This document shows positions 22,951 to 55,726 of a stretch of DNA of 64,000 nucleotides, piece after piece (positions within the stretch are counted from its first letter, which is position 1; each line of letters begins with the position of its first letter). Location of the stretch: assembly GCA_009720755.1 (NCBI GenBank), contig WNKV01000002.1, forward strand, positions 124,001 through 188,000, in the 5' to 3' direction. Below the pieces are notes generated by a model. The model saw nothing but the letters and a program-made list of their open reading frames with translations, had not been told where the DNA came from and made no database searches. Origin of the DNA: Rhodoplanes serenus (GTDB lineage: Bacteria > Pseudomonadota > Alphaproteobacteria > Rhizobiales > Xanthobacteraceae). The position numbers were made by a program, and so were the translations under genes.

Positions 22951-24174
22951 ATGCTGAACCTCACGCGCCCGTGGCGCGCGCTGCGGCGCGCTCCGCCGTC
23001 CACCGCGTCTGCCTCTGCCACACCCGGGACGCCTCCCATCCATCACAAGGCGTCGCGGACGGCGCGGCTGATCCAGCTCGACAGCGGCGGCATGGCACGG
23101 TGGACGCCGCGCGACTACGCGGCGCTCGCCCGCGAGGGCTTCGTCGCCAACGCGGTCGCCCACCGGGCCGTCAAGCTGGTCGCCGAGAACATCGCGGCGC
23201 TGACCTTCCTGGCGAGTGCCGGCGGCACGCCGCTCGACCACCATCCGCTGCTCGATCTGCTGGCTCGCCCCAACCCGCGCCAGGACGGCGCCGCGCTGCT
23301 GGAGGCGCTGGTCGCGCATCTGCTGATCAGCGGCAACGGCTATGTCGAGGCGGTCGGCCTCGATGGCCGGGTGCGCGAGCTGCATGTGCTGCGGCCCGAT
23401 CGCATGCGGGTGGTGCCGGGGCCGGACGGCTGGGCGGCCGCCTACGACTACACGGTCGCCGGCCGCACGGTGCGCTACGCCCAGCAGGGCACGCCGCCGC
23501 CGATCCTGCATGTCGCGCTGTTCCATCCGCTCGACGATCATTACGGCCTCGGCGCCATCGAGGCGGCGGCGGTCGCCATCGACATTCACAACGCCGCGGC
23601 GCGCTGGAACAAGGCGCTGCTCGACAATGCGGCGCGGCCCTCCGGCGCGCTGGTCTACGCGGCGCCCGACGGCGCCGTGCTGGCCGAGGACCAGTACGAG
23701 CGGCTGAAGAGCGAGCTGGAGGCGAGCTACCAGGGCGCCGCCAATGCGGGCCGGCCGCTGCTGCTGGAAGGCGGGCTCGACTGGAAGGCGATGTCGCTCA
23801 CCCCCAAGGACATGGACTTCCTGGAGGCGAAGAACGGCGCGGCGCGCGAGATCGCGCTCGCTTTCGGGGTGCCGCCGATGCTGCTCGGCATCCCGGGCGA
23901 CAACACCTATGCGAATTTCCAGGAGGCCAACCGGGCGTTCTGGCGCCACACCGTGCTGCCGCTGGCGACGCGCCTTTGCGGCGCGCTCGCCCACTGGCTG
24001 GCGCCGGCCTTCGGGGACGACGTGCGGCTGGAGGTCGACACCGACCGGGTCGATGCGCTCGCCGCCGACCGCGACGCGCTGTGGGAGCGCGTCACCGCGG
24101 CGCCCTTCCTGACCGTCAACGAGAAGCGCGCCATGATCGGCTTCGGTCCGGTCGACGACGGCGACCGCCTGTGA
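22951..24174 (+). CDS. GTA/HK97-type portal protein (g3-like)
   Basis: The 407-residue protein has the HK97-family portal pattern: an N-terminal arm, FVANAVAHRAVKLVAENIAAL, HPLLDLLARPNPRQDGAALLEAL, HLLISGNGYVEAV and ELHVLRPDRM. It continues with HVALFHPLDDHYGLGAIEAAAVAI, EIALAFGVPPMLLGIPGDNTYANFQEANRAFWRHTVLPLA and EKRAMIGFGP. It forms the dodecameric vertex through which DNA enters the head. The 407-residue length and the lack of a phage-like lysogeny module nearby fit GTA. It is followed within 30 bases by two short genes. It heads GTA block 1, but the terminase genes that normally precede it lie 8 kb downstream. Confidence 0.95.
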   Translation: MLNLTRPWRALRRAPPSTASASATPGTPPIHHKASRTARLIQLDSGGMARWTPRDYAALAREGFVANAVAHRAVKLVAENIAALTFLASAGGTPLDHHPLLDLLARPNPRQDGAALLEALVAHLLISGNGYVEAVGLDGRVRELHVLRPDRMRVVPGPDGWAAAYDYTVAGRTVRYAQQGTPPPILHVALFHPLDDHYGLGAIEAAAVAIDIHNAAARWNKALLDNAARPSGALVYAAPDGAVLAEDQYERLKSELEASYQGAANAGRPLLLEGGLDWKAMSLTPKDMDFLEAKNGAAREIALAFGVPPMLLGIPGDNTYANFQEANRAFWRHTVLPLATRLCGALAHWLAPAFGDDVRLEVDTDRVDALAADRDALWERVTAAPFLTVNEKRAMIGFGPVDDGDRL

Positions 24175-24202
24175 GGCGGTGCGCGCTGCCAAGGAGCCCG
24201 CC

Positions 24203-24391
24203 ATGACCGAGCTGGTCGCCACCGTGGTCGAGCGCGGCGACCTCGCGCATCTCGCGCTGTTCCTGTGGGCGTCCTCGTCGAGCGCGCTCGCCGCCTATGC
24301 GCTGCGCGAGCTGGCGGCGGCGGCGCGCCGCTTCGACGGCTTCGTCCACGCCGTCGCCCACCTCAACGACCGCCTGCGGAGACGATCCTGA
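24203..24391 (+). CDS. Small GTA-associated membrane protein (g3.5 position)
   Basis: A 62-residue product with a central hydrophobic helix (about 16-40, LAHLALFLWASSSSALAAYAL) and a basic C-terminal end. The ATG at 24203 follows AAGGAG at about 24190-24196. It occupies the position of the short gene between portal and protease in GTA clusters. The stop overlaps the next start (TGATG), so the two are translationally coupled. The function is unknown. Confidence 0.7.
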   Translation: MTELVATVVERGDLAHLALFLWASSSSALAAYALRELAAAARRFDGFVHAVAHLNDRLRRRS

Positions 24392-24564
24392 TGGATACGC
24401 TGCATGCCGTGCTGCGCAGCCTGCGCGGCGAGACCAAGTCGCGGCCCGATCCGGTCGCGGTGTTCCGCGAGTTCGTCGATCATCTCGACCGCTTGGGTCG
24501 TCGCGAGCGCCAGGGGCCGCCGGCCCGCCGCGCCAGGCCGCGCCCGCGCCGCCGCGCCAAGTAG
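24391..24564 (+). CDS. Small arginine-rich protein coupled to the g3.5-like gene
   Basis: A 57-residue product whose ATG shares its A with the TGA of the preceding gene. It has an amphipathic N-terminal half (MDTLHAVLRSLRGETKS, VAVFREFVDHLDRLGRRER) and a very basic tail. It could bind nucleic acid or the prohead interior, but no family is recognised. Confidence 0.6.
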   Translation: MDTLHAVLRSLRGETKSRPDPVAVFREFVDHLDRLGRRERQGPPARRARPRPRRRAK

Positions 24565-24597
24565 TGCCGCGCCAAGTAACGCCGCGGCGCGACCGGC

Positions 24598-25209
24598 TCA
24601 GGCGCTGAGCGCCTGATCGAGGCCGCCGACGGTGACGCCGAGGTCGTTCACCAGCCCGGTGGCGAGCGAGTAGACCCAGCCGTGCACCCACAGCGGCTGG
24701 CCCCGCGCCCATGCCTCCTGGACGAAGATGTCGGAGGCGACGTTGCGCACCTGACGGATGACGTTCAGCTCGCACAGCCGGTCGAGGCGGGTGCGCTCGT
24801 CGGCGATGGCGGTCAGCTCGGTGTGGTGGTCGTGCCAGACCTCTCGGATCGGATGCAGCCAGTGATCGACGAGGCCGCGGCGGATACCGTCCACCGCGGC
24901 CCTGACGCCGCCGCAGCCGTAATGACCCACCACCATGATGTGCTTCACCTTCAGCACGTCGACGGCGAACTGGAGCACCGAGAGGTAGTTCGCGTCCTGC
25001 GGCGGCGCCAGGTTGGCGACGTTGCGGTGGACGAACAGCTCGCCGGGATCGAGATCGACGATCTCGTTGGCCGGAACGCGGCTGTCCGAGCAGCCGATCC
25101 ACAGGTACTCGGGCGCCTGCTGGCGCTCGAGCCGCCGGAAGAAGTCCGGGTCCTGCTCGACCATGCGCTGCGCCCAGGCGCGGTTGTTGGCCTTCAGATG
25201 TCTCAGCAT
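24598..25209 (-). CDS. can: Beta-carbonic anhydrase
   Basis: The 203-residue enzyme interconverts CO2 and bicarbonate in the cytoplasm. The zinc ligands are Cys40, His96 and Cys99, with the Asp42-Arg44 dyad (WIGCSDSRVPANEI, VVGHYGCGGVRAAV). The Val-x-His-Arg-Asn block LFVHRNVANLAPP is present. The ATG at 25209 follows GGGAG. The gene is inserted on the opposite strand between the GTA small genes and the prohead protease and is intact, so it is a functional cellular gene lodged inside a virion operon. The last codons form a perfect palindrome (24598-24616). Confidence 0.95.
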   Translation of the reverse strand: MLRHLKANNRAWAQRMVEQDPDFFRRLERQQAPEYLWIGCSDSRVPANEIVDLDPGELFVHRNVANLAPPQDANYLSVLQFAVDVLKVKHIMVVGHYGCGGVRAAVDGIRRGLVDHWLHPIREVWHDHHTELTAIADERTRLDRLCELNVIRQVRNVASDIFVQEAWARGQPLWVHGWVYSLATGLVNDLGVTVGGLDQALSA

Positions 25210-25389: not shown

Positions 25390-25884
25390 ATGCTCGCGCC
25401 CGCGCTCTCGCCCCGTGCCGTCACCACCATCGACGCCGACGGCGTCGTCGAAGGCTATGCGTCGCTGTTCGGCGAGGTCGACCAGGCGCGCGACATGGTG
25501 ATGCCGGGCGCCTTCGCGCAGACGCTGCGCACCCGCGGGCTGCGCCGCATCCCGATGCTGTTCCAGCACGATCCGGCCGAGCCGATCGGCATCTGGCTGG
25601 AGCTGGTCGAGGACTTTCGTGGCCTCAAGGCACGCGGGCGGCTGATCCCCGACGTGGCGCGGGCCCGCGAGGTGCTGGCGCTGGTCAGGGCCGGCGCCGT
25701 CGACGGGCTGTCGATCGGGTTTCGCACCGTGAGAGGCCGGATCGATCCGCGCACCCGCATCCGCAAGCTCGACGCCGTCGACCTGTGGGAGATCTCCATC
25801 GTCACCTTTCCGCTGCTCGCCGGCGCGCGGGTGCGCGCCGTGCCGCCGGCGCCGGCCGTGCGCGGCTCTCACCGAGCGTCCTGA
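25390..25884 (+). CDS. GTA/HK97-type prohead protease (g4-like)
   Basis: A 164-residue U35/HK97-family serine protease that trims capsid protein during maturation. The catalytic triad is visible: His60 (MLFQHDPAEPIG), Ser108 (GAVDGLSIGFRT) and Glu134 region (LWEISIVTFP). GYASLFGEVDQARDMVMPGAF is the classic N-terminal segment. It is followed 74 bases later by the capsid gene, as in all HK97-type clusters. Confidence 0.95.
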   Translation: MLAPALSPRAVTTIDADGVVEGYASLFGEVDQARDMVMPGAFAQTLRTRGLRRIPMLFQHDPAEPIGIWLELVEDFRGLKARGRLIPDVARAREVLALVRAGAVDGLSIGFRTVRGRIDPRTRIRKLDAVDLWEISIVTFPLLAGARVRAVPPAPAVRGSHRAS

Positions 25885-25958: not shown

Positions 25959-27215
25959 ATGGACATCGATCTCGACCGTGGGCGCGCCGCGCCGGAGACC
26001 AAGGCCGGGCCGGAGGCCCGTGCCGGGTTCGACGAGCTGATGCGGACCTTCGAGACCTACAGGCAGGTCAACGACGCCCGGCTCGATCAGATCGAGCGGC
26101 GCGGGGCCGCCGATCCCCTCACCGACGACCGGCTCGCCCGCATCGATGCGGCGCTCGGCGATCAGCAGCGGCGGCTCGACGAGATCGCGCTGCGCGGCGC
26201 GCGGCCGGCGCTCGGCGGCGACCCGCCGGCCGATCCGGCCGGGCGCGAGCACAAGGCGGCGTTCGACGCCTATGTCCGGCGCGGCGACGCCAGTGGCCTG
26301 CTCGCCATCGAGCGCAAGGCCCTGTCGGTCGGCTCGGCGCCGGACGGCGGCTATCTGGTGCCGGCCGAGGTCGAGCGCGACATCGGCCGCCGTCTCGTCG
26401 ACGTGTCGCCGATCCGTGCGCTCGCCACCGTCCGCACCGTCAGCGCCAGCGTCTACAAGAAGCCGTTCATGACCTCCGGACCGGCGGTCGGCTGGGTCGG
26501 CGAGACGGCGGCGCGACCGCAGACCGACACGCAGACGCTGGCCGAGCTGAGCTTCCCGACCATGGAGCTCTACGCCATGCCGGCGGCGACCGCGACGCTG
26601 CTCGACGACGCCATGGTGGATGTCGACCAGTGGCTCGCCGCGGAGGTCGACCAGGTCTTCGCCGAGCAGGAGGGCGTCGCCTTCGTCAGCGGCGACGGCA
26701 TCAACAAGCCGAAGGGCTTTCTCGTCTACACGGCGGTCGCCAATGCCTCGTGGAGCTGGGGCAGCATCGGCTATGTGGCCACCGGGACGGCCGGGGCGTT
26801 CCCGGCCAGCAATCCGGCCGACGTGCTGATCGATCTCGGCTATGCGCTGCGGGTCGGCTATCGCCGCAACGCCACCTTCGTGATGAACCGCAAGACCGAG
26901 AGCGTGATCCGCAAGTTCAAGGATCAGAACGGCCAGTATCTGTGGAGCCCGGGCGTCGCCGCCGGCGCTCCGCCGACGCTCCTCGGCTACCCGGTGGTGT
27001 GCGACGACGCCATGCCGGACATCGCGGCGAACGCGCTGTCGGTGGCCTTCGGCGACTTTCGCCGCGGCTATCTGGTGGTCGATCGCGCCGGCGTGCGGGT
27101 GCTGCGCGATCCCTACACCGCCAAGCCCTACGTGCTGTTCTACACCACCAAGCGGGTGGGCGGCGGCGTGCAGGACTTCGACGCCATCAAGCTGCTGAAG
27201 TTCGCCGCGAGCTGA
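25959..27215 (+). CDS. GTA/HK97-type major capsid protein (g5-like)
   Basis: The 418-residue protein has an N-terminal delta/scaffold region (about 1-125: helical, charged, FDELMRTFETYRQVNDARLDQIERR), probably removed by the protease. The HK97-fold capsid body follows: APDGGYLVPAEVERDI, VGWVGETAARPQTDTQTLAELSFPTMELYAMPAAT, VFAEQEGVAFVSGDGINKPKGFL, TFVMNRKTESVIRKFKDQNG, LGYPVVCDDAMPDI, and a C-terminal DFRRGYLVVDRAGVRVLRDPYT. AGGAGACACC precedes the ATG. Confidence 0.96.
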   Translation: MDIDLDRGRAAPETKAGPEARAGFDELMRTFETYRQVNDARLDQIERRGAADPLTDDRLARIDAALGDQQRRLDEIALRGARPALGGDPPADPAGREHKAAFDAYVRRGDASGLLAIERKALSVGSAPDGGYLVPAEVERDIGRRLVDVSPIRALATVRTVSASVYKKPFMTSGPAVGWVGETAARPQTDTQTLAELSFPTMELYAMPAATATLLDDAMVDVDQWLAAEVDQVFAEQEGVAFVSGDGINKPKGFLVYTAVANASWSWGSIGYVATGTAGAFPASNPADVLIDLGYALRVGYRRNATFVMNRKTESVIRKFKDQNGQYLWSPGVAAGAPPTLLGYPVVCDDAMPDIAANALSVAFGDFRRGYLVVDRAGVRVLRDPYTAKPYVLFYTTKRVGGGVQDFDAIKLLKFAAS

Positions 27216-27308: not shown

Positions 27309-27893
27309 TCATTGCTGCACGTAGGTCTCGGTGCAGCTCAGCGAACCCCAGAAGCTGCGGGCGCAGACGCGCTCGGTGTTGTAGGCGGTGCGTCCCGGCA
27401 TCACCTCGCGCTCCGGCACGGTGGTGCCTTTGGCGGCCGCATCGGCCTGGGCGGCGACGCCGCCCTGCGGCGGCACCGGATTGGGGCCGGGCGTCTGGGC
27501 GGCCTTCGGGGCGGCGACGGCGCTGTCCTGCACCGGGCCGGTCGCGGGAGCCGGAGCCGCGGGCGCCGGGGACGCGGGAGCTGGGGCCGGCGCGGCCGCC
27601 TGCTGCTGGGGCGGCGTGGGTGTCTGCTGCTGCTGCTGCGTCGCCTGCTGATGCTGCTGGACGGGAGACTGGGCGGGCTGCGCCGGCGCAGGCTGCTGCG
27701 CCTGCTGGCCTTGCGCCGATTGAGCTTGGGTTGGCTGAGCTTGCGTCGGCTGAGGTGCGGCCGGAGTCGTCTGGCTCGGCGCCGAGGCGACCGTCGGCCG
27801 GGTGTTCATGTCGTTGTCGTCGAACGGGCTGAGCCGGCCCGAGAGGACCAGCACCAGCACGCCGAGCACGGCGGCGAGCAGAATGGCCTGCAT
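27309..27893 (-). CDS. Membrane-anchored Gln/Pro/Ala-rich protein with C-terminal Cys-pair motif
   Basis: The 194-residue protein has an N-terminal transmembrane anchor (about 2-20), a long Gln/Pro/Ala low-complexity periplasmic linker (about 35-150), and a conserved C-terminal end with CARSFWGSLSCTE. The last 25 residues match the C-terminus of the small protein at 30688 (CVRSPFGSINCKE), so both belong to one unnamed family defined by C-x-R-S-x2-G-S-x2-C-x-E. The two cysteines could form a disulfide. AGGAG precedes the ATG at 27893. The gene follows the capsid gene tail to tail. Confidence 0.7.
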   Translation of the reverse strand: MQAILLAAVLGVLVLVLSGRLSPFDDNDMNTRPTVASAPSQTTPAAPQPTQAQPTQAQSAQGQQAQQPAPAQPAQSPVQQHQQATQQQQQTPTPPQQQAAAPAPAPASPAPAAPAPATGPVQDSAVAAPKAAQTPGPNPVPPQGGVAAQADAAAKGTTVPEREVMPGRTAYNTERVCARSFWGSLSCTETYVQQ

Positions 27894-28355: not shown

Positions 28356-30191
28356 TCAGTTGCGGCCGCCCGGACCGCCGGCACCACCGCCGCCGGCACC
28401 ACCACCACCGGCACCGCCAGGGCCGCCGCCCGGACCGCCGGCTCCTCCGGCGCCGCCCGGCGAAGCCCCGGTGGTGGCGCCGCCGCGGCCACCGCCGCGC
28501 TCGGCAGCCCCGCCGCTCTGACCTCCGCCGGGAGCACCGCCGCGACCGGCCGACGAACCGTCACTACCGCCGCGCCCGGCGCTCGCGCCCGCAGGCTCGC
28601 GACCACCGCGCTCGCTCGCGCCCCGCTCGGGGCCGCCGCGCTCGGGGCCGCCCCGCTCGCTGCCGGGAACGCGCGCGCCGGGGGCCCGGTCCGCCGTCGG
28701 CCCGCCGCGCTCGGCGCCGCCTCGCTCGGCGCCGGACCGCTCCGCGCCCTGCCGGTCGCTGCGCTCCGGCTGGCGCTGATCGCGGCGCTCGGCGGCACCG
28801 TCACGGCGCTCCTGCTGGCGCTGATCGCGGCGCTCGGCCGCATCGTCGCGGCGCTCCTGCTGGCGCTGATCCCGGCGCTCGGCGGCACCGTCGCGCCGCT
28901 CCTGCTGGCGCTGATCACGACGGGCGGCGGCATCGTCCGGCCGCTCCTGCTGGCGTTGATCACGACGGGTGGCGGCATCGTCCGGCCGCTCCTGCTGGCG
29001 CTGATCACGACGCTCGGCGGCGTCCTCGCGCCGCTGGTCCGGCCGATCGCCCGGCGCCCGCTCGCCTGTCGTCGGGCCGCGCTCGGTCGGGCCGCGCTCG
29101 CCGGGGCGACGCTCGGCCGGCGCGGTCGCGGTGCCCGGCGCCGCATCGCCCGGACGGGTCTCGCCCGGCCGCGTGTCGGCCGGCTGCCGACCCGCCGCGC
29201 CCGGAGCTGCATCGCGGGCGCCATCGCGTCCGCCGTCCCGCGCCGCTGCCCGCGGCGGGGTGTCGCCGAGGCGGCCACGATCGCCGGCGGCCAGCGGCTC
29301 CGGCCGCGGCACGGTGCGGGCCGGCTCGATGGTCGTGCGGCTCTCGCGGATATAACTGGTGTCGCGGATCACCCGGCTGCGCCGGTCGCGCAGATCGTCG
29401 ACCCGTACCTCGACGGCACCCGGCACCATGCCGAAGCCGGCCAGCACTCGCGGCTGTACCGACCAGGTGCGGATCGGCCGGCCATAGGCGGCCGCGATGT
29501 AGGCCGGCGGGATGCCCGGATTGACCGCGAAGCGCGGCCCGCGGTCGTCCACCAGCACGGTGCGGTTCACCACCACGGTCTCGCGGATGAACACGTCGCG
29601 CTCGCGCGGCGGCAGGATCACGCTGGTGACCCGCTCGGCGACCAGATCGCGCGGCCGCACGAACACCCAGTAGTCGGGCCGGTCGCGCACCTCGACGACG
29701 ATCTCGTCCGGCGGCAGCGGGGCCCAGCCGACCGCGCGCTCGCCGCGCCGCCAGTCGACCCAGGCCGGCCCCCATTCGCGGCCCGGCACCCACGCCCAGC
29801 CGATCTCGGTGTCCTGCACCCAGCGGCCATAGTGATAGACCACCAGGCCCCACGCGGCCTCCTCGTCGGCGGCGTTCCAGTACCAGCCGTAATCGTCCGA
29901 GTAGACCCAGCGGCCGTTGCGGTAGGGGCGCCAGTCACGCCCGGCATTGGCGGGCACCCAGACCTCGCCCCAGCGCTGATGCCGATGCCACTTGCCGTGC
30001 GGATCGAGGGCGCCGCGGAACTCCGCCGAGACCTCCACGCGCTCCTGCGCCGTGGCCATCCCGCTCCCGATCACCGGAAGCGCGACGAGCGGGGCCGCGA
30101 CCGTGAGGACGGCCGCCAGGGCGGTCGAGCCGAGCAGGCGGACGCCGGCGGAGCATGCCCGGCCGGCGCGCGGGGAGGGGGACGAACGCAT
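28356..30191 (-). CDS. Exported DUF6600-like repeat protein with long disordered tail
   Basis: The 611-residue product has a signal peptide (about 1-48, ending ATAQE). A Trp/Tyr-rich domain (about 55-170) follows with repeated WxxYxxGxWVYSDDYGWYW and YHYGRWVQDTEIGWAWVPG segments typical of DUF6600, where each ~25-residue unit has a GxW core. After a further folded part to about 290, the C-terminal half is disordered: six 15-residue RRDQRQQER repeats (about 387-477), then GAERG/PERGG runs and a Gly-rich end. It is probably an envelope or cell-surface protein. Length variation in the repeat tract is likely between strains. Confidence 0.8.
   Translation of the reverse strand: MRSSPSPRAGRACSAGVRLLGSTALAAVLTVAAPLVALPVIGSGMATAQERVEVSAEFRGALDPHGKWHRHQRWGEVWVPANAGRDWRPYRNGRWVYSDDYGWYWNAADEEAAWGLVVYHYGRWVQDTEIGWAWVPGREWGPAWVDWRRGERAVGWAPLPPDEIVVEVRDRPDYWVFVRPRDLVAERVTSVILPPRERDVFIRETVVVNRTVLVDDRGPRFAVNPGIPPAYIAAAYGRPIRTWSVQPRVLAGFGMVPGAVEVRVDDLRDRRSRVIRDTSYIRESRTTIEPARTVPRPEPLAAGDRGRLGDTPPRAAARDGGRDGARDAAPGAAGRQPADTRPGETRPGDAAPGTATAPAERRPGERGPTERGPTTGERAPGDRPDQRREDAAERRDQRQQERPDDAATRRDQRQQERPDDAAARRDQRQQERRDGAAERRDQRQQERRDDAAERRDQRQQERRDGAAERRDQRQPERSDRQGAERSGAERGGAERGGPTADRAPGARVPGSERGGPERGGPERGASERGGREPAGASAGRGGSDGSSAGRGGAPGGGQSGGAAERGGGRGGATTGASPGGAGGAGGPGGGPGGAGGGGAGGGGAGGPGGRN
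28761..29030. repeat. Six 45-bp in-frame tandem repeats
   Basis: Units are exactly 45 bp apart (CTGGCGCTGAT-type cores at 28770, 28815, 28860, 28905, 28950 and 28995) and encode 15-residue Arg/Gln/Asp/Glu-rich repeats. They lie in the disordered tail of the DUF6600-like protein. Abutting units with no spacer rule out CRISPR. Confidence 0.9.
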
Positions 30192-30687: not shown

Positions 30688-30924
30688 ATGCGCGCATTGT
30701 TTGCTTTGCTGGTCGTCGTCGTGATGCTCTTCGTTCTCGGCAAGCTGCCCTTCCCGGCCAAGCCGCAGTCGACCCCGGTCGTCCGCCAGGCCGCCGTGGC
30801 GAAGGCGACCGGCGCCGGCACGGCCGCCGAGGCGCCGCGCCCCACCTATGTGTCGACCCGCGAGTGTGTCCGCAGCCCGTTCGGCAGCATCAACTGCAAG
30901 GAAGTCACCACGCTGAAGCCGTGA
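30688..30924 (+). CDS. Small anchored protein with C-terminal Cys-pair motif
   Basis: The 78-residue product has an N-terminal transmembrane anchor (about 2-20, ALFALLVVVVMLFVLGKLPF), a short Ala/Thr linker and the C-terminal motif RECVRSPFGSINCKEVTTL. The motif matches the C-terminus of the 194-residue protein at 27309, which suggests two paralogues with different linker lengths. GGAGA precedes the ATG at 30688. It is on the same strand as the GTA terminase genes 300 bases downstream, but no GTA role is known. Confidence 0.7.
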   Translation: MRALFALLVVVVMLFVLGKLPFPAKPQSTPVVRQAAVAKATGAGTAAEAPRPTYVSTRECVRSPFGSINCKEVTTLKP

Positions 30925-38652: not shown

Positions 38653-38657
38653 CGAGA

Positions 38658-42907: not shown

Positions 42908-42921
42908 CACGAGATCCGGCT

Positions 42922-43078
42922 GATCAATTCGGTGGTCATTCCGGAAGCCGCGAAGCGGCTGTCCGGAATTCAGCCGAGAGCTCCGAGTTTACCGCTGGAT
43001 TCCGGGCTCGCCGCGGAGCCTGCGCCCGGACGGCGCGAAGCGCCGATCCGGGTGCGGCGCCCCGGAACGACGGCGAAC
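42922..43078 (-). repeat. Dispersed intergenic repeat, copy 2 of an inverted pair
   Basis: Reverse-complement counterpart of 33167-33314, slightly longer because of a small internal insertion around 42985-43020. It lies between the convergent caspase-SUMF1 and otsA genes. Confidence 0.9.
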
Positions 43079-43110
43079 CGATCACCCGAAAACAGTATGA
43101 GAGCGGCGCG

Positions 43111-45393
<2,283 letters not shown>

Positions 45394-46385: not shown

Positions 46386-46591
46386 CGGCGCGCGCTGCCG
46401 CCGTCTCGCCGTTTCCCTGGAACGAGGCGATCGGCATCGGCCTCGGCGTCCTGCGGCTCGCACCCGATGCGTTCTGGCGGATGACGCCGCGCGAGCTGGC
46501 GCTGGCATTGCGCGCCCGCGGCATCGGCGTCGCGGCGCCGCTCGGCCGCGCCGCCTTCGCGGATCTGATGAGGAGATATCCCGATGGTTGA
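46382..46591 (+). CDS. GTA tail assembly chaperone, second part (g10.1-like)
   Basis: A 69-residue protein starting with GTG: FPWNEAIGIGLGVLRLAPDAFWRMTPRELALALRARG. This is the small DUF2376-like chaperone found between g10 and the tape measure. It overlaps both neighbours (GTGA with g10, 8 bases with g11). In phages this pair is often made by a programmed frameshift; here separate starts are visible. Confidence 0.9.
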   Translation: MTARAAAVSPFPWNEAIGIGLGVLRLAPDAFWRMTPRELALALRARGIGVAAPLGRAAFADLMRRYPDG

Positions 46592-47858: not shown

Positions 47859-47888
47859 CGGCGGGGTCGATGTGACGGGAGCGATCTC

Positions 47889-48740
47889 ATGCGACAGGTT
47901 CCGCCCGCCCTTCAGGCGCGGCTCGATGCGGGCGTCACCACGCTGTGCCGCTGCTTCGTGCTGCGCCGGCGTGACGGCGTCGTGCTCGGCTTCACCGATC
48001 ACGACGAGGACGTGAGGCTCGACGGCACCGTGTGCCGCGCCGGCACCGGGCTCGATGCCTCGGAGGCGACGAGCCGCTTCGGCTTCCAGGTCGACGGCGC
48101 CGAGGTGTCGGGCGCGCTCGCCGACGACAGCCTGACCGACGCCGATCTCGCGGCCGGCCGCTTCGACGGCGCCGCGGTGGAGACCTGGCTGGTCGACTGG
48201 AGCGAGCCGGCCCTGCGCGTGCTCGTCGCCACCGCGACGGTCGGCGAGGTGCGGCGCGAGGGCGCCGCCTTCACGGCGGAGCTGCGCTCGCTCGCCGATC
48301 GGCTCGCCCAGGAGAGCGGGCGGCTCTACACGGCGGCCTGCGATGCCGATCTCGGCGACGCGCGCTGCGGCGTCGATCTCACGGCGCCGTCCCGGCGGGC
48401 GAGCGGCACCGTGGCGGCGCTCGTCGGCACCTCGGTGCTGCGGGTGACGGGCTGCGACGGCTTTGCCGACGGCTGGCTCACCGGCGGGCGGCTCCTCTTC
48501 ACCGGCGGCGCCAATGCGGGCCTTGCTAGCGAGGTGAAGATCCACACCGCCGCGGCGGACGGCGTGACGCTGGCGCTGTGGCGGGCGATGCCCGAGCCGA
48601 TCGCGCCGGGCGACGCCTTCACGGTCACGGCCGGCTGCGACAAGAGCTTCGCCACCTGCCGCGACCGCTTCGCCAACACGGCGCGCTTCCGCGGCTTCCC
48701 ACACATTCCCGGCAACGACTATGTGATCGGCCATCCGTGA
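47889..48740 (+). CDS. GTA baseplate hub-like protein (g13-like, DUF2163)
   Basis: A 283-residue DUF2163 protein. LQARLDAGVTTLCRCFVLRRRDGVVLGFTDHDEDV opens it, AACDADLGDARCGVD and GCDKSFATCRDRFANTARFRGFPHIPGNDYVIG close it. The C-terminal conserved cysteines may bind a metal or Fe-S cluster, as seen in the RcGTA structure to my knowledge. The next gene starts 7 bases later. Confidence 0.95.
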   Translation: MRQVPPALQARLDAGVTTLCRCFVLRRRDGVVLGFTDHDEDVRLDGTVCRAGTGLDASEATSRFGFQVDGAEVSGALADDSLTDADLAAGRFDGAAVETWLVDWSEPALRVLVATATVGEVRREGAAFTAELRSLADRLAQESGRLYTAACDADLGDARCGVDLTAPSRRASGTVAALVGTSVLRVTGCDGFADGWLTGGRLLFTGGANAGLASEVKIHTAAADGVTLALWRAMPEPIAPGDAFTVTAGCDKSFATCRDRFANTARFRGFPHIPGNDYVIGHP

Positions 48741-48747
48741 GGACGCC

Positions 48748-49185
48748 ATGGTGATCGAGCGCGCGACGATCGTGGCCGAGGCGCGGAGCTGGATCGGCAC
48801 GCCCTACCGGCATCAGGCGTCGGTGAAGGGCGTCGGCTGCGACTGCCTCGGCCTCGTGCGCGGCGTCTGGCGGGCGCTGCACGGCGACGAGCCGGAGCCA
48901 TTGCCCGCCTACACGCCGGACTGGGCCGAGGCGACCGGGCGCGACACGCTGCTCGCCGCCGCGGGGCGCCATCTGATCACGATCGCGCCGGACACGGCGC
49001 GGCCCGGCGACGTGCTGCTGTTCCGCTGGCGCGCCGGCCTGCCGGCCAAGCATGCCGCCATCGTCACGGCACCCGACCTGATGGTGCATGCGCACGACGG
49101 CGCGCGCGTCGCCGAGGTGGTGATCGCGCCCTGGTGGCGCCGCCGCATCGCCGGCACCTTCGCGTTCCCGGACGTGATCGCCTGA
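48748..49185 (+). CDS. GTA NlpC/P60-family tail peptidase (g14-like)
   Basis: The 145-residue cysteine peptidase has Cys33 (GVGCDCLGLVRGVW), a His in LPAKHAAIV (about 95) and a downstream polar residue, forming the NlpC/P60 triad. In the GTA tail it is thought to cut peptidoglycan stem peptides during DNA delivery. It is tightly packed between g13 and g15. Confidence 0.95.
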   Translation: MVIERATIVAEARSWIGTPYRHQASVKGVGCDCLGLVRGVWRALHGDEPEPLPAYTPDWAEATGRDTLLAAAGRHLITIAPDTARPGDVLLFRWRAGLPAKHAAIVTAPDLMVHAHDGARVAEVVIAPWWRRRIAGTFAFPDVIA

Positions 49186-49236: not shown

Positions 49237-52200
49237 ATGGCGTCGCTCGTCTTCTCCACCGCCGGCGGCCTGCTCGGCGGCGCCCTGTTCGGCCCCCTCG
49301 GGGCGATCGCCGGGCGGCTCGCCGGCGCCCTGGTCGGCGGCGCCCTCGACCGGGCGCTCGTCGGCGACGGCGCCGAGCGCACCCGCGAGGGACCGCGCCT
49401 CGCCGATCTCGACGTGATGGCGTCGACCGAGGGGGCCCCGATCCCGCGCGTCTACGGCCGCGCTCGCCTGGCCGGCCAGGTGATCTGGGCGACCCCGATC
49501 GAGGAGGTGGCGACCACCACGACGACGCCCGAGGAGGGCGGCGGCAAGGGCATGGGCGGAGGCGGCGGCGGCACCACGACCACCACCTACAGCTACTTCG
49601 CCAATCTCGCGGTGGGCGTCTGCGCCGGCCCGATCGGCCGCATCGGCCGCATCTGGGCGGATGGCGCGCCGCTCGATCTCGCCGGCCTCGCGGTCCGCCT
49701 CTACCGGGGCGACGAGGCGCAGGCCGCCGATCCGCTGATCGTGGCCAAGCAGGGGGCCGCCGGCGCGCCGGCCTATCGCGGTCTCGCCTATGTGGTGTTC
49801 GAGCGGCTGCCGCTCGCCCGCTTCGGCAATCGCATCCCGCAGCTCGCCTTCGAGGTGGTGCGGCCGGTCGGGGCGCTGGAGCGGATGGTGCGCGCCGTCA
49901 CCCTGATTCCGGGCGCGACCGAGTTCGGCTATGCGCCGGACGCCGTGGTGCGCCAGATCGAGCGCAGCCAGTGGGGGGCCGAGAACCGGCACGTCGCGAC
50001 CGCGGCCGCCGACGTGGAGGCGGCGCTCGACGATCTCCAGGCGGTGTGCCCGAACGTCGCTCGCGTCGCCGTGGTGGTCTCCTGGTTCGGCACCGACCTG
50101 CGGGCCGGCGTCTGCGAGGTCCGGCCGGCGGTCGATTCCGCCATCAAGCGCACCCATCCGGTCGCCTGGTCGGTGGCGGGCCTGACGCGCGCCGCCGCGC
50201 CCCGCGTCTCCGAGATCGACGGCCGCCCGGCCTATGGCGGCACGCCGTCGGACGCGAGCGTGCGCGCGCTGATCGCCGAGCTGAAGGCGCGCGGTCTCGC
50301 CGTCACGCTCTACCCGTTCGTGATGATGGACCTGCCGCCCGGCAACGGCCGTCCCGATCCGTGGACCGGCGCGGCCTCGCAGCCGGCCTATCCGTGGCGC
50401 GGCCGCATCACCTGCGATCCGGCGCCGGGACGGCCCGGCTCGCCGGACGGCACCGCCGCGGCGGCCGCTCAGGTCGATGCCTTCTTCGGGGCCGGGGCGC
50501 CGGGCGCCTGGCGCTATCGCCGCATGGTGCTGCACTACGCCCAGCTCGCGCTGGCCGCCGGCGGCGTCGATGCCTTCGTGATCGGCTCGGAGCTGATCGG
50601 CCTCACCCGGGTGCGCAGCGCGTCCGGCGTCTATCCGGCCGTCACGGCGCTGGCGGCGCTCGCGGCCGAGGTGAAGGCGATCCTCGGTCCCGGCACCCGC
50701 ATCACCTACGCGGCCGACTGGACCGAGTACGGCGTCCATGTGGTCGATGCCGCGGCCACGGAGGTGCGCTTTCCGCTCGATCCGCTGTGGGCGTCGCCCG
50801 CCATCGATACCATCGGCATCGACTGGTACGCGCCGCTCGCCGACTGGCGCGACACCGCCGACCACCTGGACCGCGGGCTCGCCGACGCGATCCACGATCG
50901 TGCGTACCTCGCCCGCCATCTCCGCGCCGGCGAGGCCTTCGACTGGTTCTACGCAAACGCCACCGCCCGCGCGGCTCAGCTCCGCACCCCGATCACCGAC
51001 GGGCTCGGCAAGCCGTGGGTGTTCCGCCAGAAGGACATCTGGAGCTTCTGGTCCAGTCCGCATCACGAGCGGGTGGGTGGCGTCGAGCTGGCGGCGCCGA
51101 CCGCCTGGGTGCCGCGATCGAAGCCGATCTGGCTGACCGAGGTCGGCTGCCCGGCGGTCGACAAGGGCGCCAACCAGCCGAGCATCTTTCCCGATCCCAA
51201 GTCGTCGGACGGCGGCCGGCCGTGGTTCTCCACCGGACGCCGCGACGACCTGATGCAGCGCCGCTTCCTCGAAGCGGTGCTGACCCGCCTCGATCCCGCG
51301 CTCGGCGCCGTCGAGGCCGACAACCCGGTGTCGCCGCTCTATGGCGGCCGCATGATCGATCCGGCGGCCATCCATCTGTGGACCTGGGACGCGCGGCCGT
51401 GGCCGGTGTTCCCGGCCGCCGCCGACATCTGGAGCGACGCCGCCAACTGGGAGACCGGGCACTGGCTCTGTGGCCGGCTGGGCGGTGCTCCGCTCGATGG
51501 CTTCGTCGCCGCGATGCTCGCCGATGCCGGCGTCGCCGGCTGCGACAGCGGCCGGCTCGGCGAGGGGCCCGACGGCTATGTGATCGACCGGCCGATGACG
51601 GTGCGGGCCGCGCTGGAGCCGCTCGCCGCCGCCTATGCGTTCGACGCCGTCGCCGAGGGCGCCACCCTGGCGTTCCGGCACCGCGGCGGCGCGCCGGTGG
51701 CGGAGCTCTCGGAGGACGATCTGGTGCTGCCCGAGCGCGGCGCCCCCGTCCGCCTGGTGCGGGCGCAGGAGACCGAGCTGCCGCACGCGGTGTCGCTCGG
51801 CTTCACCGATGGCGCCGCCGACTATCGTCGCGCCGCCGTGCAGTCGCGCCGCATGGTCGGCGGGGCCGCCCGGGTGCTGCACGCCGATCTCGCCGCCGTC
51901 GTCGAGCGGGCCGAGGCGGAGCGCCGGGCCGAGATCCGGCTCCAGGATCTGTGGGCCGGCCGCGAGCGGGCGAGCTTCGCGCTGCCGCCGTCGCGGCTGG
52001 CGCTGATGCCGGGCGACGTCGTCGCCCTGACGGTCGCGGGCCGCCGCCGCCTCGTCGAGATCGGCGAGCTCGTCGACGGCGCGGCGCGGGCCGTGACGGC
52101 GCGATCGATCGATCCGGAGGTGTTCGCCCTGCCGCTGCGGCCGCGGCCGCGCGAGGCCCCGCCGATGCCCGATCCGGTCGGGCCGGCCGCCGTCGCGGTG

Positions 52201-53115
52201 CTCGACCTGCCGGGCCTGCCGGCCGACACCGCGCCGGTGCTGGCCCGCATCGCGGTCGTCGCCTCGCCGTGGCCGCGCGCCATGGCGGTGTGGCGTTCCT
52301 TCGACGGCGAGACCTTCGAGCGCGTCGCGGTGATCCCGGCGCCGGCCCTGATGGGCGAGACGCTGGACCCGGTGCCGGCCGGCCCCACCGGCCGGCTCGA
52401 TCGCCGCACCGCCTTCCGGGTCCGCCTCGCCGGCGGGATGCTCGCGGCGGTCTCCGACGCGGCGCTGCTCGGCGGCGCCAACGCGGCGGTGCTGCAAGGC
52501 GCGGACGGCCGTTGCGAGGTGATCCAGTTCGCCGCCGCCGAGTTGGTGGACACGCGGACCTGGCGGCTGTCGCGGCTTCTGCGTGGCCAGGCCGGCACCG
52601 AGCACGCGGTCACGGCATCGCTGCCGGCGGGCGCTGGCTTCGTGATGCTGGACGCCGCCGTCACGGCGGTCGCCCAGAGCATCGATCTGCTCGGCCGTCC
52701 GATGACGCTGCGGGTGGCGGCGGCCGATCGCCACCACGGCGATCCGAGCGCCGTCACGGTGGATCTGACGGCGCAGCCGACGGCGCTGCGGCCGCTCTCG
52801 CCCGTGCATCTGCGGGCGCGGCGGAGCGTCGCCGGCGTGCATCTCTCTTGGGTTCGCCGCACCCGCCGCGACGGCGACTCGTGGGAGGCCGCCGAGGTGC
52901 CGCTCGGCGAGGAGCGCGAAGCCTACCGGATCGACATCCTGGCCGGTGCGGCGGTGCGGCGGTCCCTGGCGACCGACACCCCCGCGGTTCTCTACCCGGC
53001 CGCCGACGAGATCGCCGACTTCGGTGCCCCGCAGGCGAGCCTGACGGTGCGTGTCGCCCAGCTCTCGGCGACGGTCGGCGCCGGTGTCCCCACCACCGCG
53101 ACCCTCGCGGTGTGA
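49237..53115 (+). CDS. GTA host-specificity / megatron tail protein with TIM-barrel-like domain (g15-like)
   Basis: A 1292-residue protein. The N-terminus is a glycine-zipper helix pair (about 5-45), followed by a hub domain. A glycosidase-type TIM-barrel-like section (about 240-720) shows GSELIGLTRV (about 450), DWTEYG (about 494), GIDWYAPL (about 527) and TEVGCPAVDKGANQPS (about 632). The C-terminal beta-rich part (about 900-1290) matches the Rcc01698-type C-terminal region. It forms the tail tip. A GGGGGG-TTTTT linker (about 105-125) marks a flexible loop. Its length is close to RcGTA g15, and no frame breaks are seen. Confidence 0.95.
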   Translation: MASLVFSTAGGLLGGALFGPLGAIAGRLAGALVGGALDRALVGDGAERTREGPRLADLDVMASTEGAPIPRVYGRARLAGQVIWATPIEEVATTTTTPEEGGGKGMGGGGGGTTTTTYSYFANLAVGVCAGPIGRIGRIWADGAPLDLAGLAVRLYRGDEAQAADPLIVAKQGAAGAPAYRGLAYVVFERLPLARFGNRIPQLAFEVVRPVGALERMVRAVTLIPGATEFGYAPDAVVRQIERSQWGAENRHVATAAADVEAALDDLQAVCPNVARVAVVVSWFGTDLRAGVCEVRPAVDSAIKRTHPVAWSVAGLTRAAAPRVSEIDGRPAYGGTPSDASVRALIAELKARGLAVTLYPFVMMDLPPGNGRPDPWTGAASQPAYPWRGRITCDPAPGRPGSPDGTAAAAAQVDAFFGAGAPGAWRYRRMVLHYAQLALAAGGVDAFVIGSELIGLTRVRSASGVYPAVTALAALAAEVKAILGPGTRITYAADWTEYGVHVVDAAATEVRFPLDPLWASPAIDTIGIDWYAPLADWRDTADHLDRGLADAIHDRAYLARHLRAGEAFDWFYANATARAAQLRTPITDGLGKPWVFRQKDIWSFWSSPHHERVGGVELAAPTAWVPRSKPIWLTEVGCPAVDKGANQPSIFPDPKSSDGGRPWFSTGRRDDLMQRRFLEAVLTRLDPALGAVEADNPVSPLYGGRMIDPAAIHLWTWDARPWPVFPAAADIWSDAANWETGHWLCGRLGGAPLDGFVAAMLADAGVAGCDSGRLGEGPDGYVIDRPMTVRAALEPLAAAYAFDAVAEGATLAFRHRGGAPVAELSEDDLVLPERGAPVRLVRAQETELPHAVSLGFTDGAADYRRAAVQSRRMVGGAARVLHADLAAVVERAEAERRAEIRLQDLWAGRERASFALPPSRLALMPGDVVALTVAGRRRLVEIGELVDGAARAVTARSIDPEVFALPLRPRPREAPPMPDPVGPAAVAVLDLPGLPADTAPVLARIAVVASPWPRAMAVWRSFDGETFERVAVIPAPALMGETLDPVPAGPTGRLDRRTAFRVRLAGGMLAAVSDAALLGGANAAVLQGADGRCEVIQFAAAELVDTRTWRLSRLLRGQAGTEHAVTASLPAGAGFVMLDAAVTAVAQSIDLLGRPMTLRVAAADRHHGDPSAVTVDLTAQPTALRPLSPVHLRARRSVAGVHLSWVRRTRRDGDSWEAAEVPLGEEREAYRIDILAGAAVRRSLATDTPAVLYPAADEIADFGAPQASLTVRVAQLSATVGAGVPTTATLAV

Positions 53116-54232: not shown

Positions 54233-54327
54233 CCGATCATCCCGGTCTCCCGCCCGGCAGGCAAGCGACCCGGCGCTGCCGGCGCGGCCGAGCCGGCTCC
54301 CCTTGTCCCGCACCTGCGGAGATCCCC

Positions 54328-55095
54328 ATGGCCACGCACACCTACGACGAGGCGCTGCGGCGCCTGCTCGTCCACGAAGGCGGCTACACGAACCATCCGT
54401 CCGATCCGGGCGGGCCGACCAAGCACGGCATCACCATCCACGACTATCGCCGCTTCATCGATCCCGGCGGTACCGCGGCCGATGTCCGCGCCATGACGGT
54501 CGATCAGGCCAAGGCGATCTACCGGGCGCGCTACTGGGACGCGCTGCGCTGCGAGGACCTGCCGGCCGGCGTCGATTACGCGGTGTTCGACTACGGGGTG
54601 AACTCCGGCATTGGCCGGGCGGGGCGCGTTCTGCGCCGGCTGCTCGGCCTGCCCGACCGCGAGCACACCGTCACCGCGACCGTGATCGCGGCGGTGGCGC
54701 GGCGTGATCCCGCCGCCCTGGTGGCGGCGATCTGCGACGAGCGCCTCGCGTTCCTGCGGCGGCTGAAGACCTGGCCGGTGTTCGGCCGCGGCTGGGGTCG
54801 ACGGGTGGCCGAGGTGCGGGCCACGGCGCTCAGGATGGCGTCCGGACGGAGCGATCCGCCGCGGCGAGGCATCACCGGGGCGGCGGCGGCCGGCGGCCTC
54901 GCCGCTGCCGGTGGCGCCGCTGGTGCGGCGGGCGCGGCCGGATGGCTCGCCGATGCGCCGCCCTGGGCGCTCGCCGGGCTGGCGGTCGCGCTCGTGCTGG
55001 TCGCCGTGGCGATCGGGGTGGCGCTGCATTGGCGTCGGCGCGGCCGGCCGGCGGTCGCCGGGGTACCCGCCGCGGCGCCTGGAATCGACGGCTGA
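54328..55095 (+). CDS. GH108-type lysozyme with C-terminal membrane helix (endolysin)
   Basis: The 255-residue enzyme has the N-acetylmuramidase motif HEGGYTNHPSDPGGPTKHGIT with catalytic Glu17, then YWDALRCEDLPAGVDYAVFDYGVNSGIGRA and a peptidoglycan-binding part to about 165. A Gly/Ala-rich linker precedes a transmembrane helix (about 215-235) and a basic tail. The C-terminal anchor is unusual for a soluble endolysin and may hold it in the membrane until release. It is followed 16 bases later by the holin gene. Confidence 0.92.
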   Translation: MATHTYDEALRRLLVHEGGYTNHPSDPGGPTKHGITIHDYRRFIDPGGTAADVRAMTVDQAKAIYRARYWDALRCEDLPAGVDYAVFDYGVNSGIGRAGRVLRRLLGLPDREHTVTATVIAAVARRDPAALVAAICDERLAFLRRLKTWPVFGRGWGRRVAEVRATALRMASGRSDPPRRGITGAAAAGGLAAAGGAAGAAGAAGWLADAPPWALAGLAVALVLVAVAIGVALHWRRRGRPAVAGVPAAAPGIDG

Positions 55096-55111
55096 GAACG
55101 GGAGGAGTGGC

Positions 55112-55726
55112 ATGGACTGGCGCGATCTCGGCGGAGCCCTGGTGAAGGCGGGGGCACCGATCATCGGCACCGCCCTCGGCGGGCCGCTCGGCGGGCTCAT
55201 CGGGCAGGCGATCGGCGGCGTGGTGGCGGAGGCGCTCGGCGTCGAGCCAACCCCCGCGGCGGTCGACACGGCGTTGCGCACCACGCCGGGGCCGGCCCTG
55301 GAGGAGAGGCTCGCGGCGGCGGACGACGCCGTGCAGGCGCGCTGGCCGGCGCTCGCCGCCATCGTCCGGGCGGAGGCCGAGGCGCAGGCCGCCGCGGTCG
55401 CCGCCACCAACGCCACCATGCGGGCCGAGCAGGCGGCCGGCGATGTGGTGCAGCGGTGGTGGCGACCGCTCTACGCCTTCGAGCTGACCCTCGAATGCGC
55501 GGCCTTCTGGCTCGTGCTGATCGGGGCGCTCGCCCGCGGTGACGTCGCCCCGCTCAACGCCGCCATCAATGCCACCGGCCTGCTGACGCTATATTGGGGC
55601 GCCCGCTTCGCGGTGCTCGGCGTCTATGTCAACGGCCGCTCGCGCGAGAAGCAGGCGCTGCTCACCGGCGAGCCGGTGCCGACCGTGATCGAGCGGATGG
55701 CGCGCACCGTGCAGCGCCGCCGCTGA
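55112..55726 (+). CDS. GTA holin-like protein (3TM holin family)
   Basis: The 204-residue protein has a Gly-rich N-terminal hydrophobic segment (about 10-45, APIIGTALGGPLGGLIGQAIGGVV), a charged alanine-rich middle and two C-terminal transmembrane helices (about 123-145 and 155-175: FELTLECAAFWLVLIGALARG, TGLLTLYWGARFAVLGVYVNGR). This matches the GTA 3TM-holin family. GGAGGAG precedes the ATG. With the lysozyme it makes a lysis cassette directly behind the tail genes. Confidence 0.9.
   Translation: MDWRDLGGALVKAGAPIIGTALGGPLGGLIGQAIGGVVAEALGVEPTPAAVDTALRTTPGPALEERLAAADDAVQARWPALAAIVRAEAEAQAAAVAATNATMRAEQAAGDVVQRWWRPLYAFELTLECAAFWLVLIGALARGDVAPLNAAINATGLLTLYWGARFAVLGVYVNGRSREKQALLTGEPVPTVIERMARTVQRRR

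What the first reader, a model, noticed from the sequence alone, without database searches (positions are those of the whole stretch)
22951..55726. A complete GTA-like particle gene set split into four permuted blocks among cellular genes
Every core GTA structural gene I would expect (small and large terminase, portal, protease, capsid, connector, closure, terminator, tube, chaperones, tape measure, distal tail, hub, NlpC/P60, megatron) is present, intact and on the plus strand. They occupy 22.9-27.2, 31.2-33.1, 36.9-38.7 and 46.0-55.7 kb instead of one ~15 kb run, and the terminase pair lies after the capsid. The separators are intact cellular genes, mostly on the opposite strand. Known GTA clusters are usually contiguous and co-transcribed from one promoter; here at least four transcription starts would be needed. 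The intact frames imply selection for function despite fragmentation. No integrase, repressor or replication gene is seen, which argues against a recent prophage.
Basis: partly seen in the sequence, partly recalled or inferred. Interest (0 to 1): 0.85.

Follow-up and report, generated by a model that had tools for sequence, protein, structure and literature searches.

The report
Split gene transfer agent, swapped packaging motor
A bacterium carries what looks like a complete, domesticated virus particle for exporting its own DNA, and the genes look scattered and out of order because ordinary genes moved in between them and its DNA-packaging motor was replaced by a second, related copy.

Summary
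The order is shared with independently assembled Rhodoplanes relatives, so it is not a misassembly. The core genes are open and under purifying selection. The interpretation changes in two ways.

(1) Fragmentation is not special to this genome. GTA clusters across this family have taken up cellular genes (complete clusters fetched span 16.6-38.3 kb; a compact outgroup 14.6 kb; this one 30.2 kb).

(2) The cluster is not permuted by block moves. Only the terminase pair is out of place, and it is not the ancestral pair. Its TerL belongs to a second lineage, 'copy 2' (38 rows, support 100/99), made up of displaced in-cluster pairs and solo TerS-TerL pairs elsewhere in the genome. Eight fetched relatives keep both kinds in one cluster. 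Here the ancestral pair in front of the portal gene appears lost.

Copy-2 TerS carries a predicted N-terminal helix-turn-helix, which published GTA small terminases are said to lack; a 24-row clade of standard TerS lacks it. My searches found no report of a second GTA terminase lineage. Particle production is untested.

The parts
22714..22869 (+). Small ORF 'x' (51 aa, hydrophobic C-terminal half); precedes TerS in a number of standard clusters; here 81 nt from the portal gene
   Evidence: reading as a scar of terminase loss is inference; dN/dS above 1 in 2 of 3 pairs
22951..24174 (+). g3 portal protein
   Evidence: PF04860 3e-93; TIGR01537 235 bits
24203..24564 (+). two small ORFs (24203-24391, 24391-24564) conserved after portal in the family
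   Evidence: tblastn in relatives; no Pfam match
24598..25209 (-). separator: carbonic anhydrase
   Evidence: PF00484 2.7e-52; start estimated; seen in G001, G002, G004, not in the G003 stretch
25390..25884 (+). g4 prohead protease (S78)
   Evidence: PF04586 5.8e-39
25959..27215 (+). g5 HK97 major capsid protein
   Evidence: PF05065 1.1e-89
27309..27893 (-). separator: Gln/Pro/Ala-rich protein, no family
   Evidence: no Pfam match; sequence read
28356..30191 (-). separator: DUF6600 protein
   Evidence: PF20245 2.7e-33
30688..30924 (+). separator: 78-aa ORF, no family
31225..31911 (+). g1 small terminase, copy-2 type, with predicted N-terminal helix-turn-helix (about residues 19-57)
   Evidence: phrog_1206 2.6e-6; AlphaFold2 helices 19-31, 36-42, 47-57; own HMM 46.0 bits against 8.4 best of 1760 shuffles; no Pfam match at E <= 1
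31871..33148 (+). g2 large terminase, copy-2 lineage, only match of its kind in the genome
   Evidence: PF03237 1.2e-27, PF17289 5.5e-24; tree; 1 match in own genome
33357..35759 (-). separator: PAS histidine kinase with receiver domain
36032..36841 (-). separator: trypsin-like protease, kept at this site in the family
   Evidence: PF00089 2.3e-19; 17 of 17 family genomes mapped; start
36893..37453 (+). g6 head-tail connector
   Evidence: TIGR02215 7.9e-44 (on 36884-37453); start
37450..37776 (+). g7 head completion protein
   Evidence: PF05521 1.1e-22
37801..38208 (+). g8 tail completion gp17
   Evidence: PF11367 2.1e-37
38245..38652 (+). g9 tail tube
   Evidence: PF06199 3.9e-46
38701..45393 (.). 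separators: DUF992 (-), globin-coupled MCP (-), caspase-FGE (+, 41216-42907), GT20 (-, 43111-45393)
46014..47186 (+). g10 GTA-gp10, TAC chaperone (46382-46591), g11 short tape measure (46584-47186)
   Evidence: PF11836, PF09550; PHROG tape-measure families
47214..49185 (+). g12 DUF2460, g13 baseplate hub, g14 NlpC/P60 peptidase
49237..53115 (+). g15 megatron baseplate protein
   Evidence: PF13547 9.2e-138; NF048004 1790.6 bits
53141..55726 (+). DUF2793 protein, GH108 endolysin (54328-55095), GTA 3TM holin (55112-55726)

Best explanation
This is the RcGTA-type gene transfer agent of a Rhodoplanes species. How it came about: an ancestral contiguous cluster took up cellular genes at several joints (shown by comparison). 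A second terminase pair, copy 2, sits in the cluster between capsid and connector. The original pair in front of the portal gene was lost, so copy 2 is now the only GTA terminase found in the genome (shown: one TerL match, copy-2 by the tree, and eight relatives with both kinds in the cluster; the loss itself is inferred from position). How it would work: GafA (DUF6456, elsewhere in the genome) switches on the plus-strand genes in a few cells; RNA polymerase reads through, or restarts at, the separators; capsid, portal, connector and tail assemble; TerS, which has a predicted helix-turn-helix, recruits TerL to chromosomal DNA; TerL fills heads by the headful mode; endolysin and holin release the particles. 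All of these working steps are inferred from family knowledge. Copy 2 arose either by duplication inside the family or by transfer from a relative; the tree does not settle which.
For: Gene identity. Same order in relatives. TerL tree of 89 rows: 18 displaced in-cluster rows form one clade (100/95); 20 solo rows form another (99/96); together a 38-row clade (100/99); the 50 rows labelled standard lie outside. Two of these 50 (L035, L038) have no portal on their short contigs and got the label by default. One row labelled solo, L012, is on a 4.1-kb contig and also lies outside. Both kinds in one cluster: G030, G041; G135, G210, G161, G172, G088, G252. Census (places typed): 102 of 145 TerL places standard (portal 50-5802 nt downstream, median 496), 16 displaced with the portal 7.2-20.5 kb upstream, 27 other. 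Purifying selection: NG86 dN/dS in pairs of the window with G001-G004 is below 1 for every g1-g15 gene compared (0.14-0.70; TerL 0.16-0.20). GafA-type gene: 1 in own genome. Over 80 genomes TerL and DUF6456 are both present in 56, both absent in 13, discordant in 11 (Fisher 4.7e-7, no correction for kinship). Side-chain carbon of g12-g15 is lower than in the genome's own prophage homologues in 4 of 4, the direction reported for GTAs (PMC7360931, start of abstract in a listing).
Against: No expression or particle data exist. NG86 dN/dS is rough at 72% GC, and TerS (0.55-0.65), g7 (up to 0.70) and DUF2793 (up to 0.90) are only weakly constrained. A single clade of the 42 standard TerLs of the family part tested is only weakly rejected (p-AU 0.04), so duplication versus transfer stays open. 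The scar marker x is short, has dN/dS above 1 in two of three pairs, gave no hit in G004 and a hit on the opposite strand in G002. The place of copy 2 is not the same everywhere: before the protease in G041 and between protease and capsid in G252. g12 of the window has more side-chain carbon than the other GTA copies compared (G059 about equal) and than one of two prophage copies on aligned parts.
Confidence: 0.77

Rival explanations
1. The terminase pair simply moved from in front of the portal gene to behind the capsid gene by a local rearrangement; no second lineage is involved.
For: One TerL match only in each of G000-G004.
Against: The displaced TerL groups with displaced and solo copies of other genera (100/99), not with standard copies; eight relatives hold both kinds in one cluster.
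Confidence: 0.05
2. The cluster is a decaying remnant: fragmentation is a step toward loss, and no particle is made.
For: Some relatives show only TerS-TerL-portal and the 3' end (L023, L047, L078); separators differ between species; TerS and DUF2793 evolve fast.
Against: Window frames are open; no stop inside the TerL, portal, tube and megatron matches of G001-G004 that are full GTA homologues; dN/dS well below 1 for portal, protease, TerL, tube, g12, megatron.
Confidence: 0.15
3. Copy 2 came from a phage related to GTAs and was recruited into the cluster.
For: Exchange between phages and GTAs is described (PMC7947584, results part 1 of 2).
Against: The best phage-collection TerL is 60% identical and lies in a GTA-like cluster (MW091529); in the 103-row tree the five phage-collection TerLs fall outside all family GTA copies, joined only by one 48%-identical TerL of G010:C32. 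241 phage records matched and only five were put in the tree.
Confidence: 0.07
4. Each segment has its own GafA-dependent promoter, so fragmentation is tolerated by duplicated control sites rather than by read-through.
For: Long gaps and one large co-oriented separator; AT-rich stretches before TerS and before g10.
Against: No 4+4 dyad was shared by more than 2 of 5 segment upstreams, and the four shared ones are GC-only words; some relatives' start positions were estimated, so the test is weak.
Confidence: 0.35

Closest known systems
RcGTA-type gene transfer agents (Rhodobacter capsulatus and relatives; viriform GTAs of Alphaproteobacteria)
   Same: Gene content g1-g15 in the same relative order except the terminase; megatron equivalog above its curated cut-off; GafA-type regulator elsewhere; no integrase, repressor or replication family among the 40 proteins scanned
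   Different: Five segments with cellular genes between; terminase pair of another lineage placed after the capsid; TerS with a predicted helix-turn-helix; endolysin and holin directly behind the tail genes
RcGTA gp1 small terminase (PMC6854486, passages and section 10)
   Same: Gene directly upstream of TerL; fast-evolving; conserved C-terminal stretch
   Different: [quoted passage not shown] here 228 aa with a predicted helix-turn-helix
Replacement of the g7 head completion gene in Sphingomonadales GTAs (PMC9765227, passage)
   Same: One functional part of a GTA replaced while the rest stays
   Different: There a different gene; here a related second terminase lineage with surviving intermediates
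Caulobacter GTA with GafY/GafZ activation and anti-termination (PMC11150451, passages)
   Same: Likely type of control
   Different: 14-kb compact cluster

Membership tests
RcGTA-type gene transfer agent | Head-tail gene set with GTA-specific megatron, hub and gp10 families | tested here: met
RcGTA-type gene transfer agent | At least six GTA genes with gaps no larger than 8 kb (published clustering rule, PMC6821227 passage) | tested here: met
   largest gap in the window is about 7.4 kb (38652-46014); the machine-learning classifier itself was not run
RcGTA-type gene transfer agent | Contiguous cluster read from one promoter (usual, but not part of the published clustering rule, so I do not treat it as defining) | tested here: not met
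   contiguity fails (five segments); co-transcription not testable here
RcGTA-type gene transfer agent | Inherited in the lineage with open frames under purifying selection | tested here: met
RcGTA-type gene transfer agent | GafA-type activator in the genome | tested here: met
   DUF6456 2.9e-49; name GafA = DUF6456 from PMC9765227, passage
RcGTA-type gene transfer agent | Reduced side-chain carbon against phage homologues | tested here: inconclusive
   lower in 4 of 4 tail genes than in the own prophage, in 3 of 4 than in the G037 prophage (aligned parts)
RcGTA-type gene transfer agent | Particles that carry and transfer host DNA | not testable with these tools
   needs culture
GTA-type small terminase as described in PMC6854486 | Short (92-125 aa in its table) and without N-terminal helix-turn-helix | tested here: not met
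   228 aa, HTH predicted
Temperate prophage | Integrase, repressor or replication genes with the structural genes | tested here: not met
   none among the 40 proteins scanned with Pfam over 18.5-59.3 kb; 0-18.4 kb and 59.4-64 kb not scanned

The most novel reading that the evidence does not exclude
The family keeps two kinds of GTA packaging motor. One has a small terminase without a DNA-reading domain, mostly with a lysine/alanine-rich, histone-like tail, and packs anything. The other (copy 2) keeps a DNA-reading helix-turn-helix, two in Rhodopseudomonas and its near relatives, and packs with a preference. Replacing one motor by the other, or running a solo motor from a host locus, would change which chromosomal DNA the particle exports. 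In Rhodoplanes the replacement is complete.
Probability: 0.15. Interest if true: 0.88.

Novelty: new variant of a known kind. Interest (0 to 1): 0.62.

Why it matters
The random packaging of GTAs has been put down to a small terminase that lost its DNA-binding domain (PMC6854486, passages). Here one family shows both states, with natural intermediates carrying two or three terminase pairs. That makes a direct test possible: remove one pair at a time and sequence the packaged DNA. It also suggests that a domesticated particle can survive dispersal of its genes and replacement of its motor, which bears on how GTAs stay functional over long times.

Tried and rejected
Misassembly: rejected by G001 and G004. 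Second GTA cluster with this one as paralogue: not seen for portal, tube and TerL (one match each in the own genome). A weak Terminase_6N hit on C16 (23.1 bits, just over the 22-bit cut-off) was not matched by the TerL protein query; that region holds a GH108 homologue (45%) and was not followed further. Contig C7 has prophage-like g12-g15, DUF2793 and GH108 homologues at 36-52% identity. Overlapping genes (carbonic anhydrase over protease, trypsin over connector): artefacts of long antisense ORFs. Shared promoter word before the segments: none found, weak test. Strand bias of inserted genes (on gene calls that miss some genes, the window's trypsin and carbonic anhydrase among them): in Rhodoplanes 11 of 12 inserted families antisense (binomial 0.006), in other genomes 30 of 65 with 2 ties set aside (0.62); the Rhodoplanes set includes neighbouring genes that probably came together, so families are not independent. 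GTA-specific TerL residues P282/C292 of PMC7947584: my column search for P or C did not recover a phage-distinct cysteine (C278 is near-invariant in the 89 rows); only five phage-collection rows, one of them GTA-like, so left open. Residues specific to copy 2: none at the thresholds used. Foldseek of the TerS model: no match at E <= 0.001; many of the top rows are helix-turn-helix proteins at E 0.8-5, which is not evidence. TerS Pfam: the window protein matched nothing at E <= 1. LypABC-type lysis genes of PMC13236601 (abstract, passages): the family trypsin gene shows only trypsin domains above cut-off in Pfam and I did not search the genome for LypABC.
Full report
What the window is. The window is G000:C22:124001-188000 of a 5.5-Mb genome in 51 contigs, 99.7% complete, about 72% GC. 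By identical TerLs the tool's family f1 also holds Tardiphaga robiniae (G030), Nitrobacter vulgaris (G023), a Pseudolabrys (G038), a Rhodopseudomonas MAG (G010) and a Variibacter MAG (G033). That genus g28 (G032, G135, G182, G210) is Rhodopseudomonas is inferred from its place beside L006 and L007 in the tree.

Observation. A GTA gene set is present, open and on the plus strand. It falls into five segments: portal with two small ORFs; protease-capsid; TerS-TerL; connector to tube; g10 to holin. Two long antisense ORFs that appear to overlap GTA genes are frame artefacts: the overlapping parts match relatives where the sense GTA gene is, including G059, which lacks the separator genes.

Comparison of clusters. 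I fetched and mapped clusters of 18 relatives, 17 of them in family f1, and seven more of f1 later. G059, from another family, is compact: 14.6 kb from first to last core gene. Spans by the same measure in f1: window 30.2, G032 34.9, G030 38.3, G016 28.0, G042 27.4, G010 21.9, G038 21.6, G029 20.9, G023 20.6, G037 17.7, G033 16.6 kb (clusters cut by fetch limits or contig ends left out). So dispersal is a family trend with this genus among the wider cases. A trypsin-like gene lies antisense before the connector in 17 of 17 f1 genomes, and not in G059; it is also in Microvirga, Xanthobacter and Ancylobacter loci and not seen in Cohaesibacter or Methylocystis loci. Other separators are lineage-bound: the carbonic anhydrase domain is seen in G001, G002, G004 and the window but not in the G003 stretch; GT20 only in the window among the stretches fetched.

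The terminase pair. In most relatives TerS-TerL sits directly before the portal. In the window, G001 and G004 it sits after the capsid; in G002 and G003 it sits before trypsin and connector on a contig without the portal. G030 and G041 have a pair in both places, and so do G135, G210, G161, G172, G088 and G252 (for G041 and G172 no TerS was matched beside the standard TerL by tblastn, though an ORF is there). The second place is after the capsid in six of these eight; in G041 it is before the protease, in G252 between protease and capsid. In a tree of 103 TerLs the displaced copies and a set of solo pairs grouped apart from standard copies. A careful tree of 89 rows gave displaced 18 rows (100/95), solo 20 rows (99/96), both together 38 rows (100/99), and 50 standard rows outside. 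For it I left out 36 of the 103 rows (30 of other genera such as Microvirga, Methylocystis, Xanthobacter and Ancylobacter; five phage-collection rows; one distant TerL) and offered 24 new ones, of which two were duplicates. Labels follow the neighbouring genes seen. Weak labels: L035 and L038 are standard by default (no portal on short contigs); L050, G120 and L013 are solo with only about 1 to 3.5 kb of DNA downstream; L012, labelled solo, is on a 4.1-kb contig and falls outside the clade.

Census. In 291 family genomes of at least 90% completeness, TerL (E <= 1e-40) is found in 176 and portal (E <= 1e-60) in 157. Both listings of places were cut by the tool. Of these 145 places, 102 are standard, 16 displaced with the portal upstream, 22 on another contig, the other strand or far away, and 5 in genomes without a typed portal row. 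Some 'other contig' places (for example G002, G003, G223) may be contig breaks rather than solo pairs. Because the listing was cut, G172 and G088 showed no standard copy there but were later found to have one.

Solo pairs. ORFs around 19 solo loci were compared and five loci were gene-called. Ten share a neighbouring gene that reads as a fumarylacetoacetate hydrolase, with thi genes on the other side in two of the three gene-called; six share a gene that reads as murC, with murG and murB nearby in the two gene-called; three share neither. These gene names are my reading of the sequences, not a family search. Shared neighbours in several genera suggest stable host loci rather than mobile elements. 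G088 and G252 each hold a standard, a displaced and a solo pair; G016 and G174 a standard and two solo pairs. One solo copy (G042) lacks about its first 42 residues, no TerS was found with it, and it looks decayed.

Origin of copy 2. Holding 42 standard TerLs of the family as one clade (Xanthobacter and Ancylobacter rows counted as outgroup) costs 28.5 log-likelihood units, p-AU 0.04. That weakly favours an origin inside the part of the family that holds Pseudolabrys, with later transfer into Rhodopseudomonas and Tardiphaga, but does not settle it. The small ORF x stands before TerS or TerL in 10 of the 80 named loci and in G030, G038, G029, G252, G172, G161 and G174. In the window it lies 81 nt before the portal, and about 90 to 250 nt before it in G001, G003, G032 and G182 (estimated); G002 gave a hit on the other strand and G004 none. 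I read this as the site where the ancestral pair was lost.

Small terminase. [quoted passage not shown]). The window TerS is 228 aa. AlphaFold2 gives three helices at 19-31, 36-42 and 47-57 with block pLDDT 92-96 for residues 21-60, in a model of mean pLDDT 74.8 and pTM 0.37. An HMM made from displaced TerS proteins and iterated on the whole set finds the domain in 17 of 18 displaced, 17 of 20 solo-labelled and 25 of 50 standard TerS; the best of 1760 shuffles scored 8.4 bits in the last round. Searching three frames of up to 2 kb upstream of all 89 TerLs gave 17 of 18, 17 of 21 and 25 of 50. Four of the five displaced and solo misses have under 600 nt upstream on their contig; the fifth is the decayed G042 copy. 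The 25 standard misses are all 24 rows of the Nitrobacteraceae-plus-G043 clade, and G041 (925 nt available). Of those 24, 21 have a 60-residue stretch with at least 13% lysine, but some helix-turn-helix TerS have that too; one (G210) matches a histone H1-like family at 1.6e-5, below that family's cut-off (25.5 against 40 bits). Six displaced TerS of Rhodopseudomonas and g28 have two domains; one of them (G135) passes the Pfam HTH_23 cut-off (26.2 against 24.6 bits). Because the HMM was iterated on this same set, the scores are not independent evidence. So the published rule does not hold across this order: helix-turn-helix TerS are also predicted in the standard clusters of Microvirga, Xanthobacter, Cohaesibacter and others in the set. 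A helix-turn-helix does not prove sequence preference.

Selection and control. NG86 dN/dS between the window and G001-G004 is below 1 for all g1-g15 genes compared; not every gene was available in every genome. GafA-type DUF6456: one gene, contig C51; co-occurrence with TerL over 80 genomes Fisher 4.7e-7, with no correction for kinship. In Caulobacter the GafZ protein acts as an anti-terminator, and GafZ is homologous to the C-terminal part of GafA (PMC11150451, passages), so one transcript through the separators is possible; it is not shown.

Novelty. Library searches for GTA with Methylobacterium, Rhodoplanes, synteny and split, DUF6456, Rhodopseudomonas and terminase, machine-learning classification, TerL second copy, small terminase and helix-turn-helix, and two copies with terminase (listings) and passages of PMC9765227, PMC6854486, PMC11409702, PMC10883770 and PMC6821227 showed no report of a second GTA terminase lineage or of solo pairs. 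Extra genes inside Rhodopseudomonas clusters are mentioned (PMC11409702, passage). One paper reports GTA clusters in one copy per genome (PMC6821227, passage). Most subscription papers are not held and supplements were not open, so this is a limited statement. PMC7947584 was read as abstract, results part 1 of 2 and section 3.4; it reports one origin of GTA TerL and does not, in what I read, discuss paralogues.

Verdict. An RcGTA-type system, dispersed but probably functional, whose odd gene order is best explained by terminase replacement. New variant of a known kind.

Noticed in passing
36032-36841 (-): A trypsin-like protease gene is kept antisense before the connector in 17 of 17 family genomes mapped and in many Microvirga, Xanthobacter and Ancylobacter loci.
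   Followed up: partly
56653-58703 (+): A response regulator and histidine kinase pair follows the holin; the regulator is 84-95% identical in several other genomes next to the GTA end.
   Followed up: no
41216-42907 (+): A caspase-FGE protein (PADLOC caspase 1.4e-8) is the one large co-oriented separator; also seen in G001 and, cut by the contig end, G002.
   Followed up: no
19184-22327 (-): A type IIG restriction-methylation enzyme lies beside the portal gene here and in G001, G002, G004.
   Followed up: no
L127 (G000:C7:78000-97999): A separate prophage-like region carries g12-g15, DUF2793 and GH108 homologues (36-52% identity), with a second copy of the megatron N-terminal part.
   Followed up: partly
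L136 (MW091529.1): A record deposited as a sewage bacteriophage shows the standard GTA gene order and looks like a GTA cluster.
   Followed up: no
L023, L047, L078: Clusters that show only TerS-TerL-portal followed by the holin end, one of them a Rhodoplanes piscinae MAG with a standard-type TerL.
   Followed up: no
L145:2395-3348 and other standard TerS of the Nitrobacteraceae clade: Standard small terminases without the helix-turn-helix, mostly with a lysine/alanine-rich N-terminal tail, one of them histone-H1-like.
   Followed up: partly
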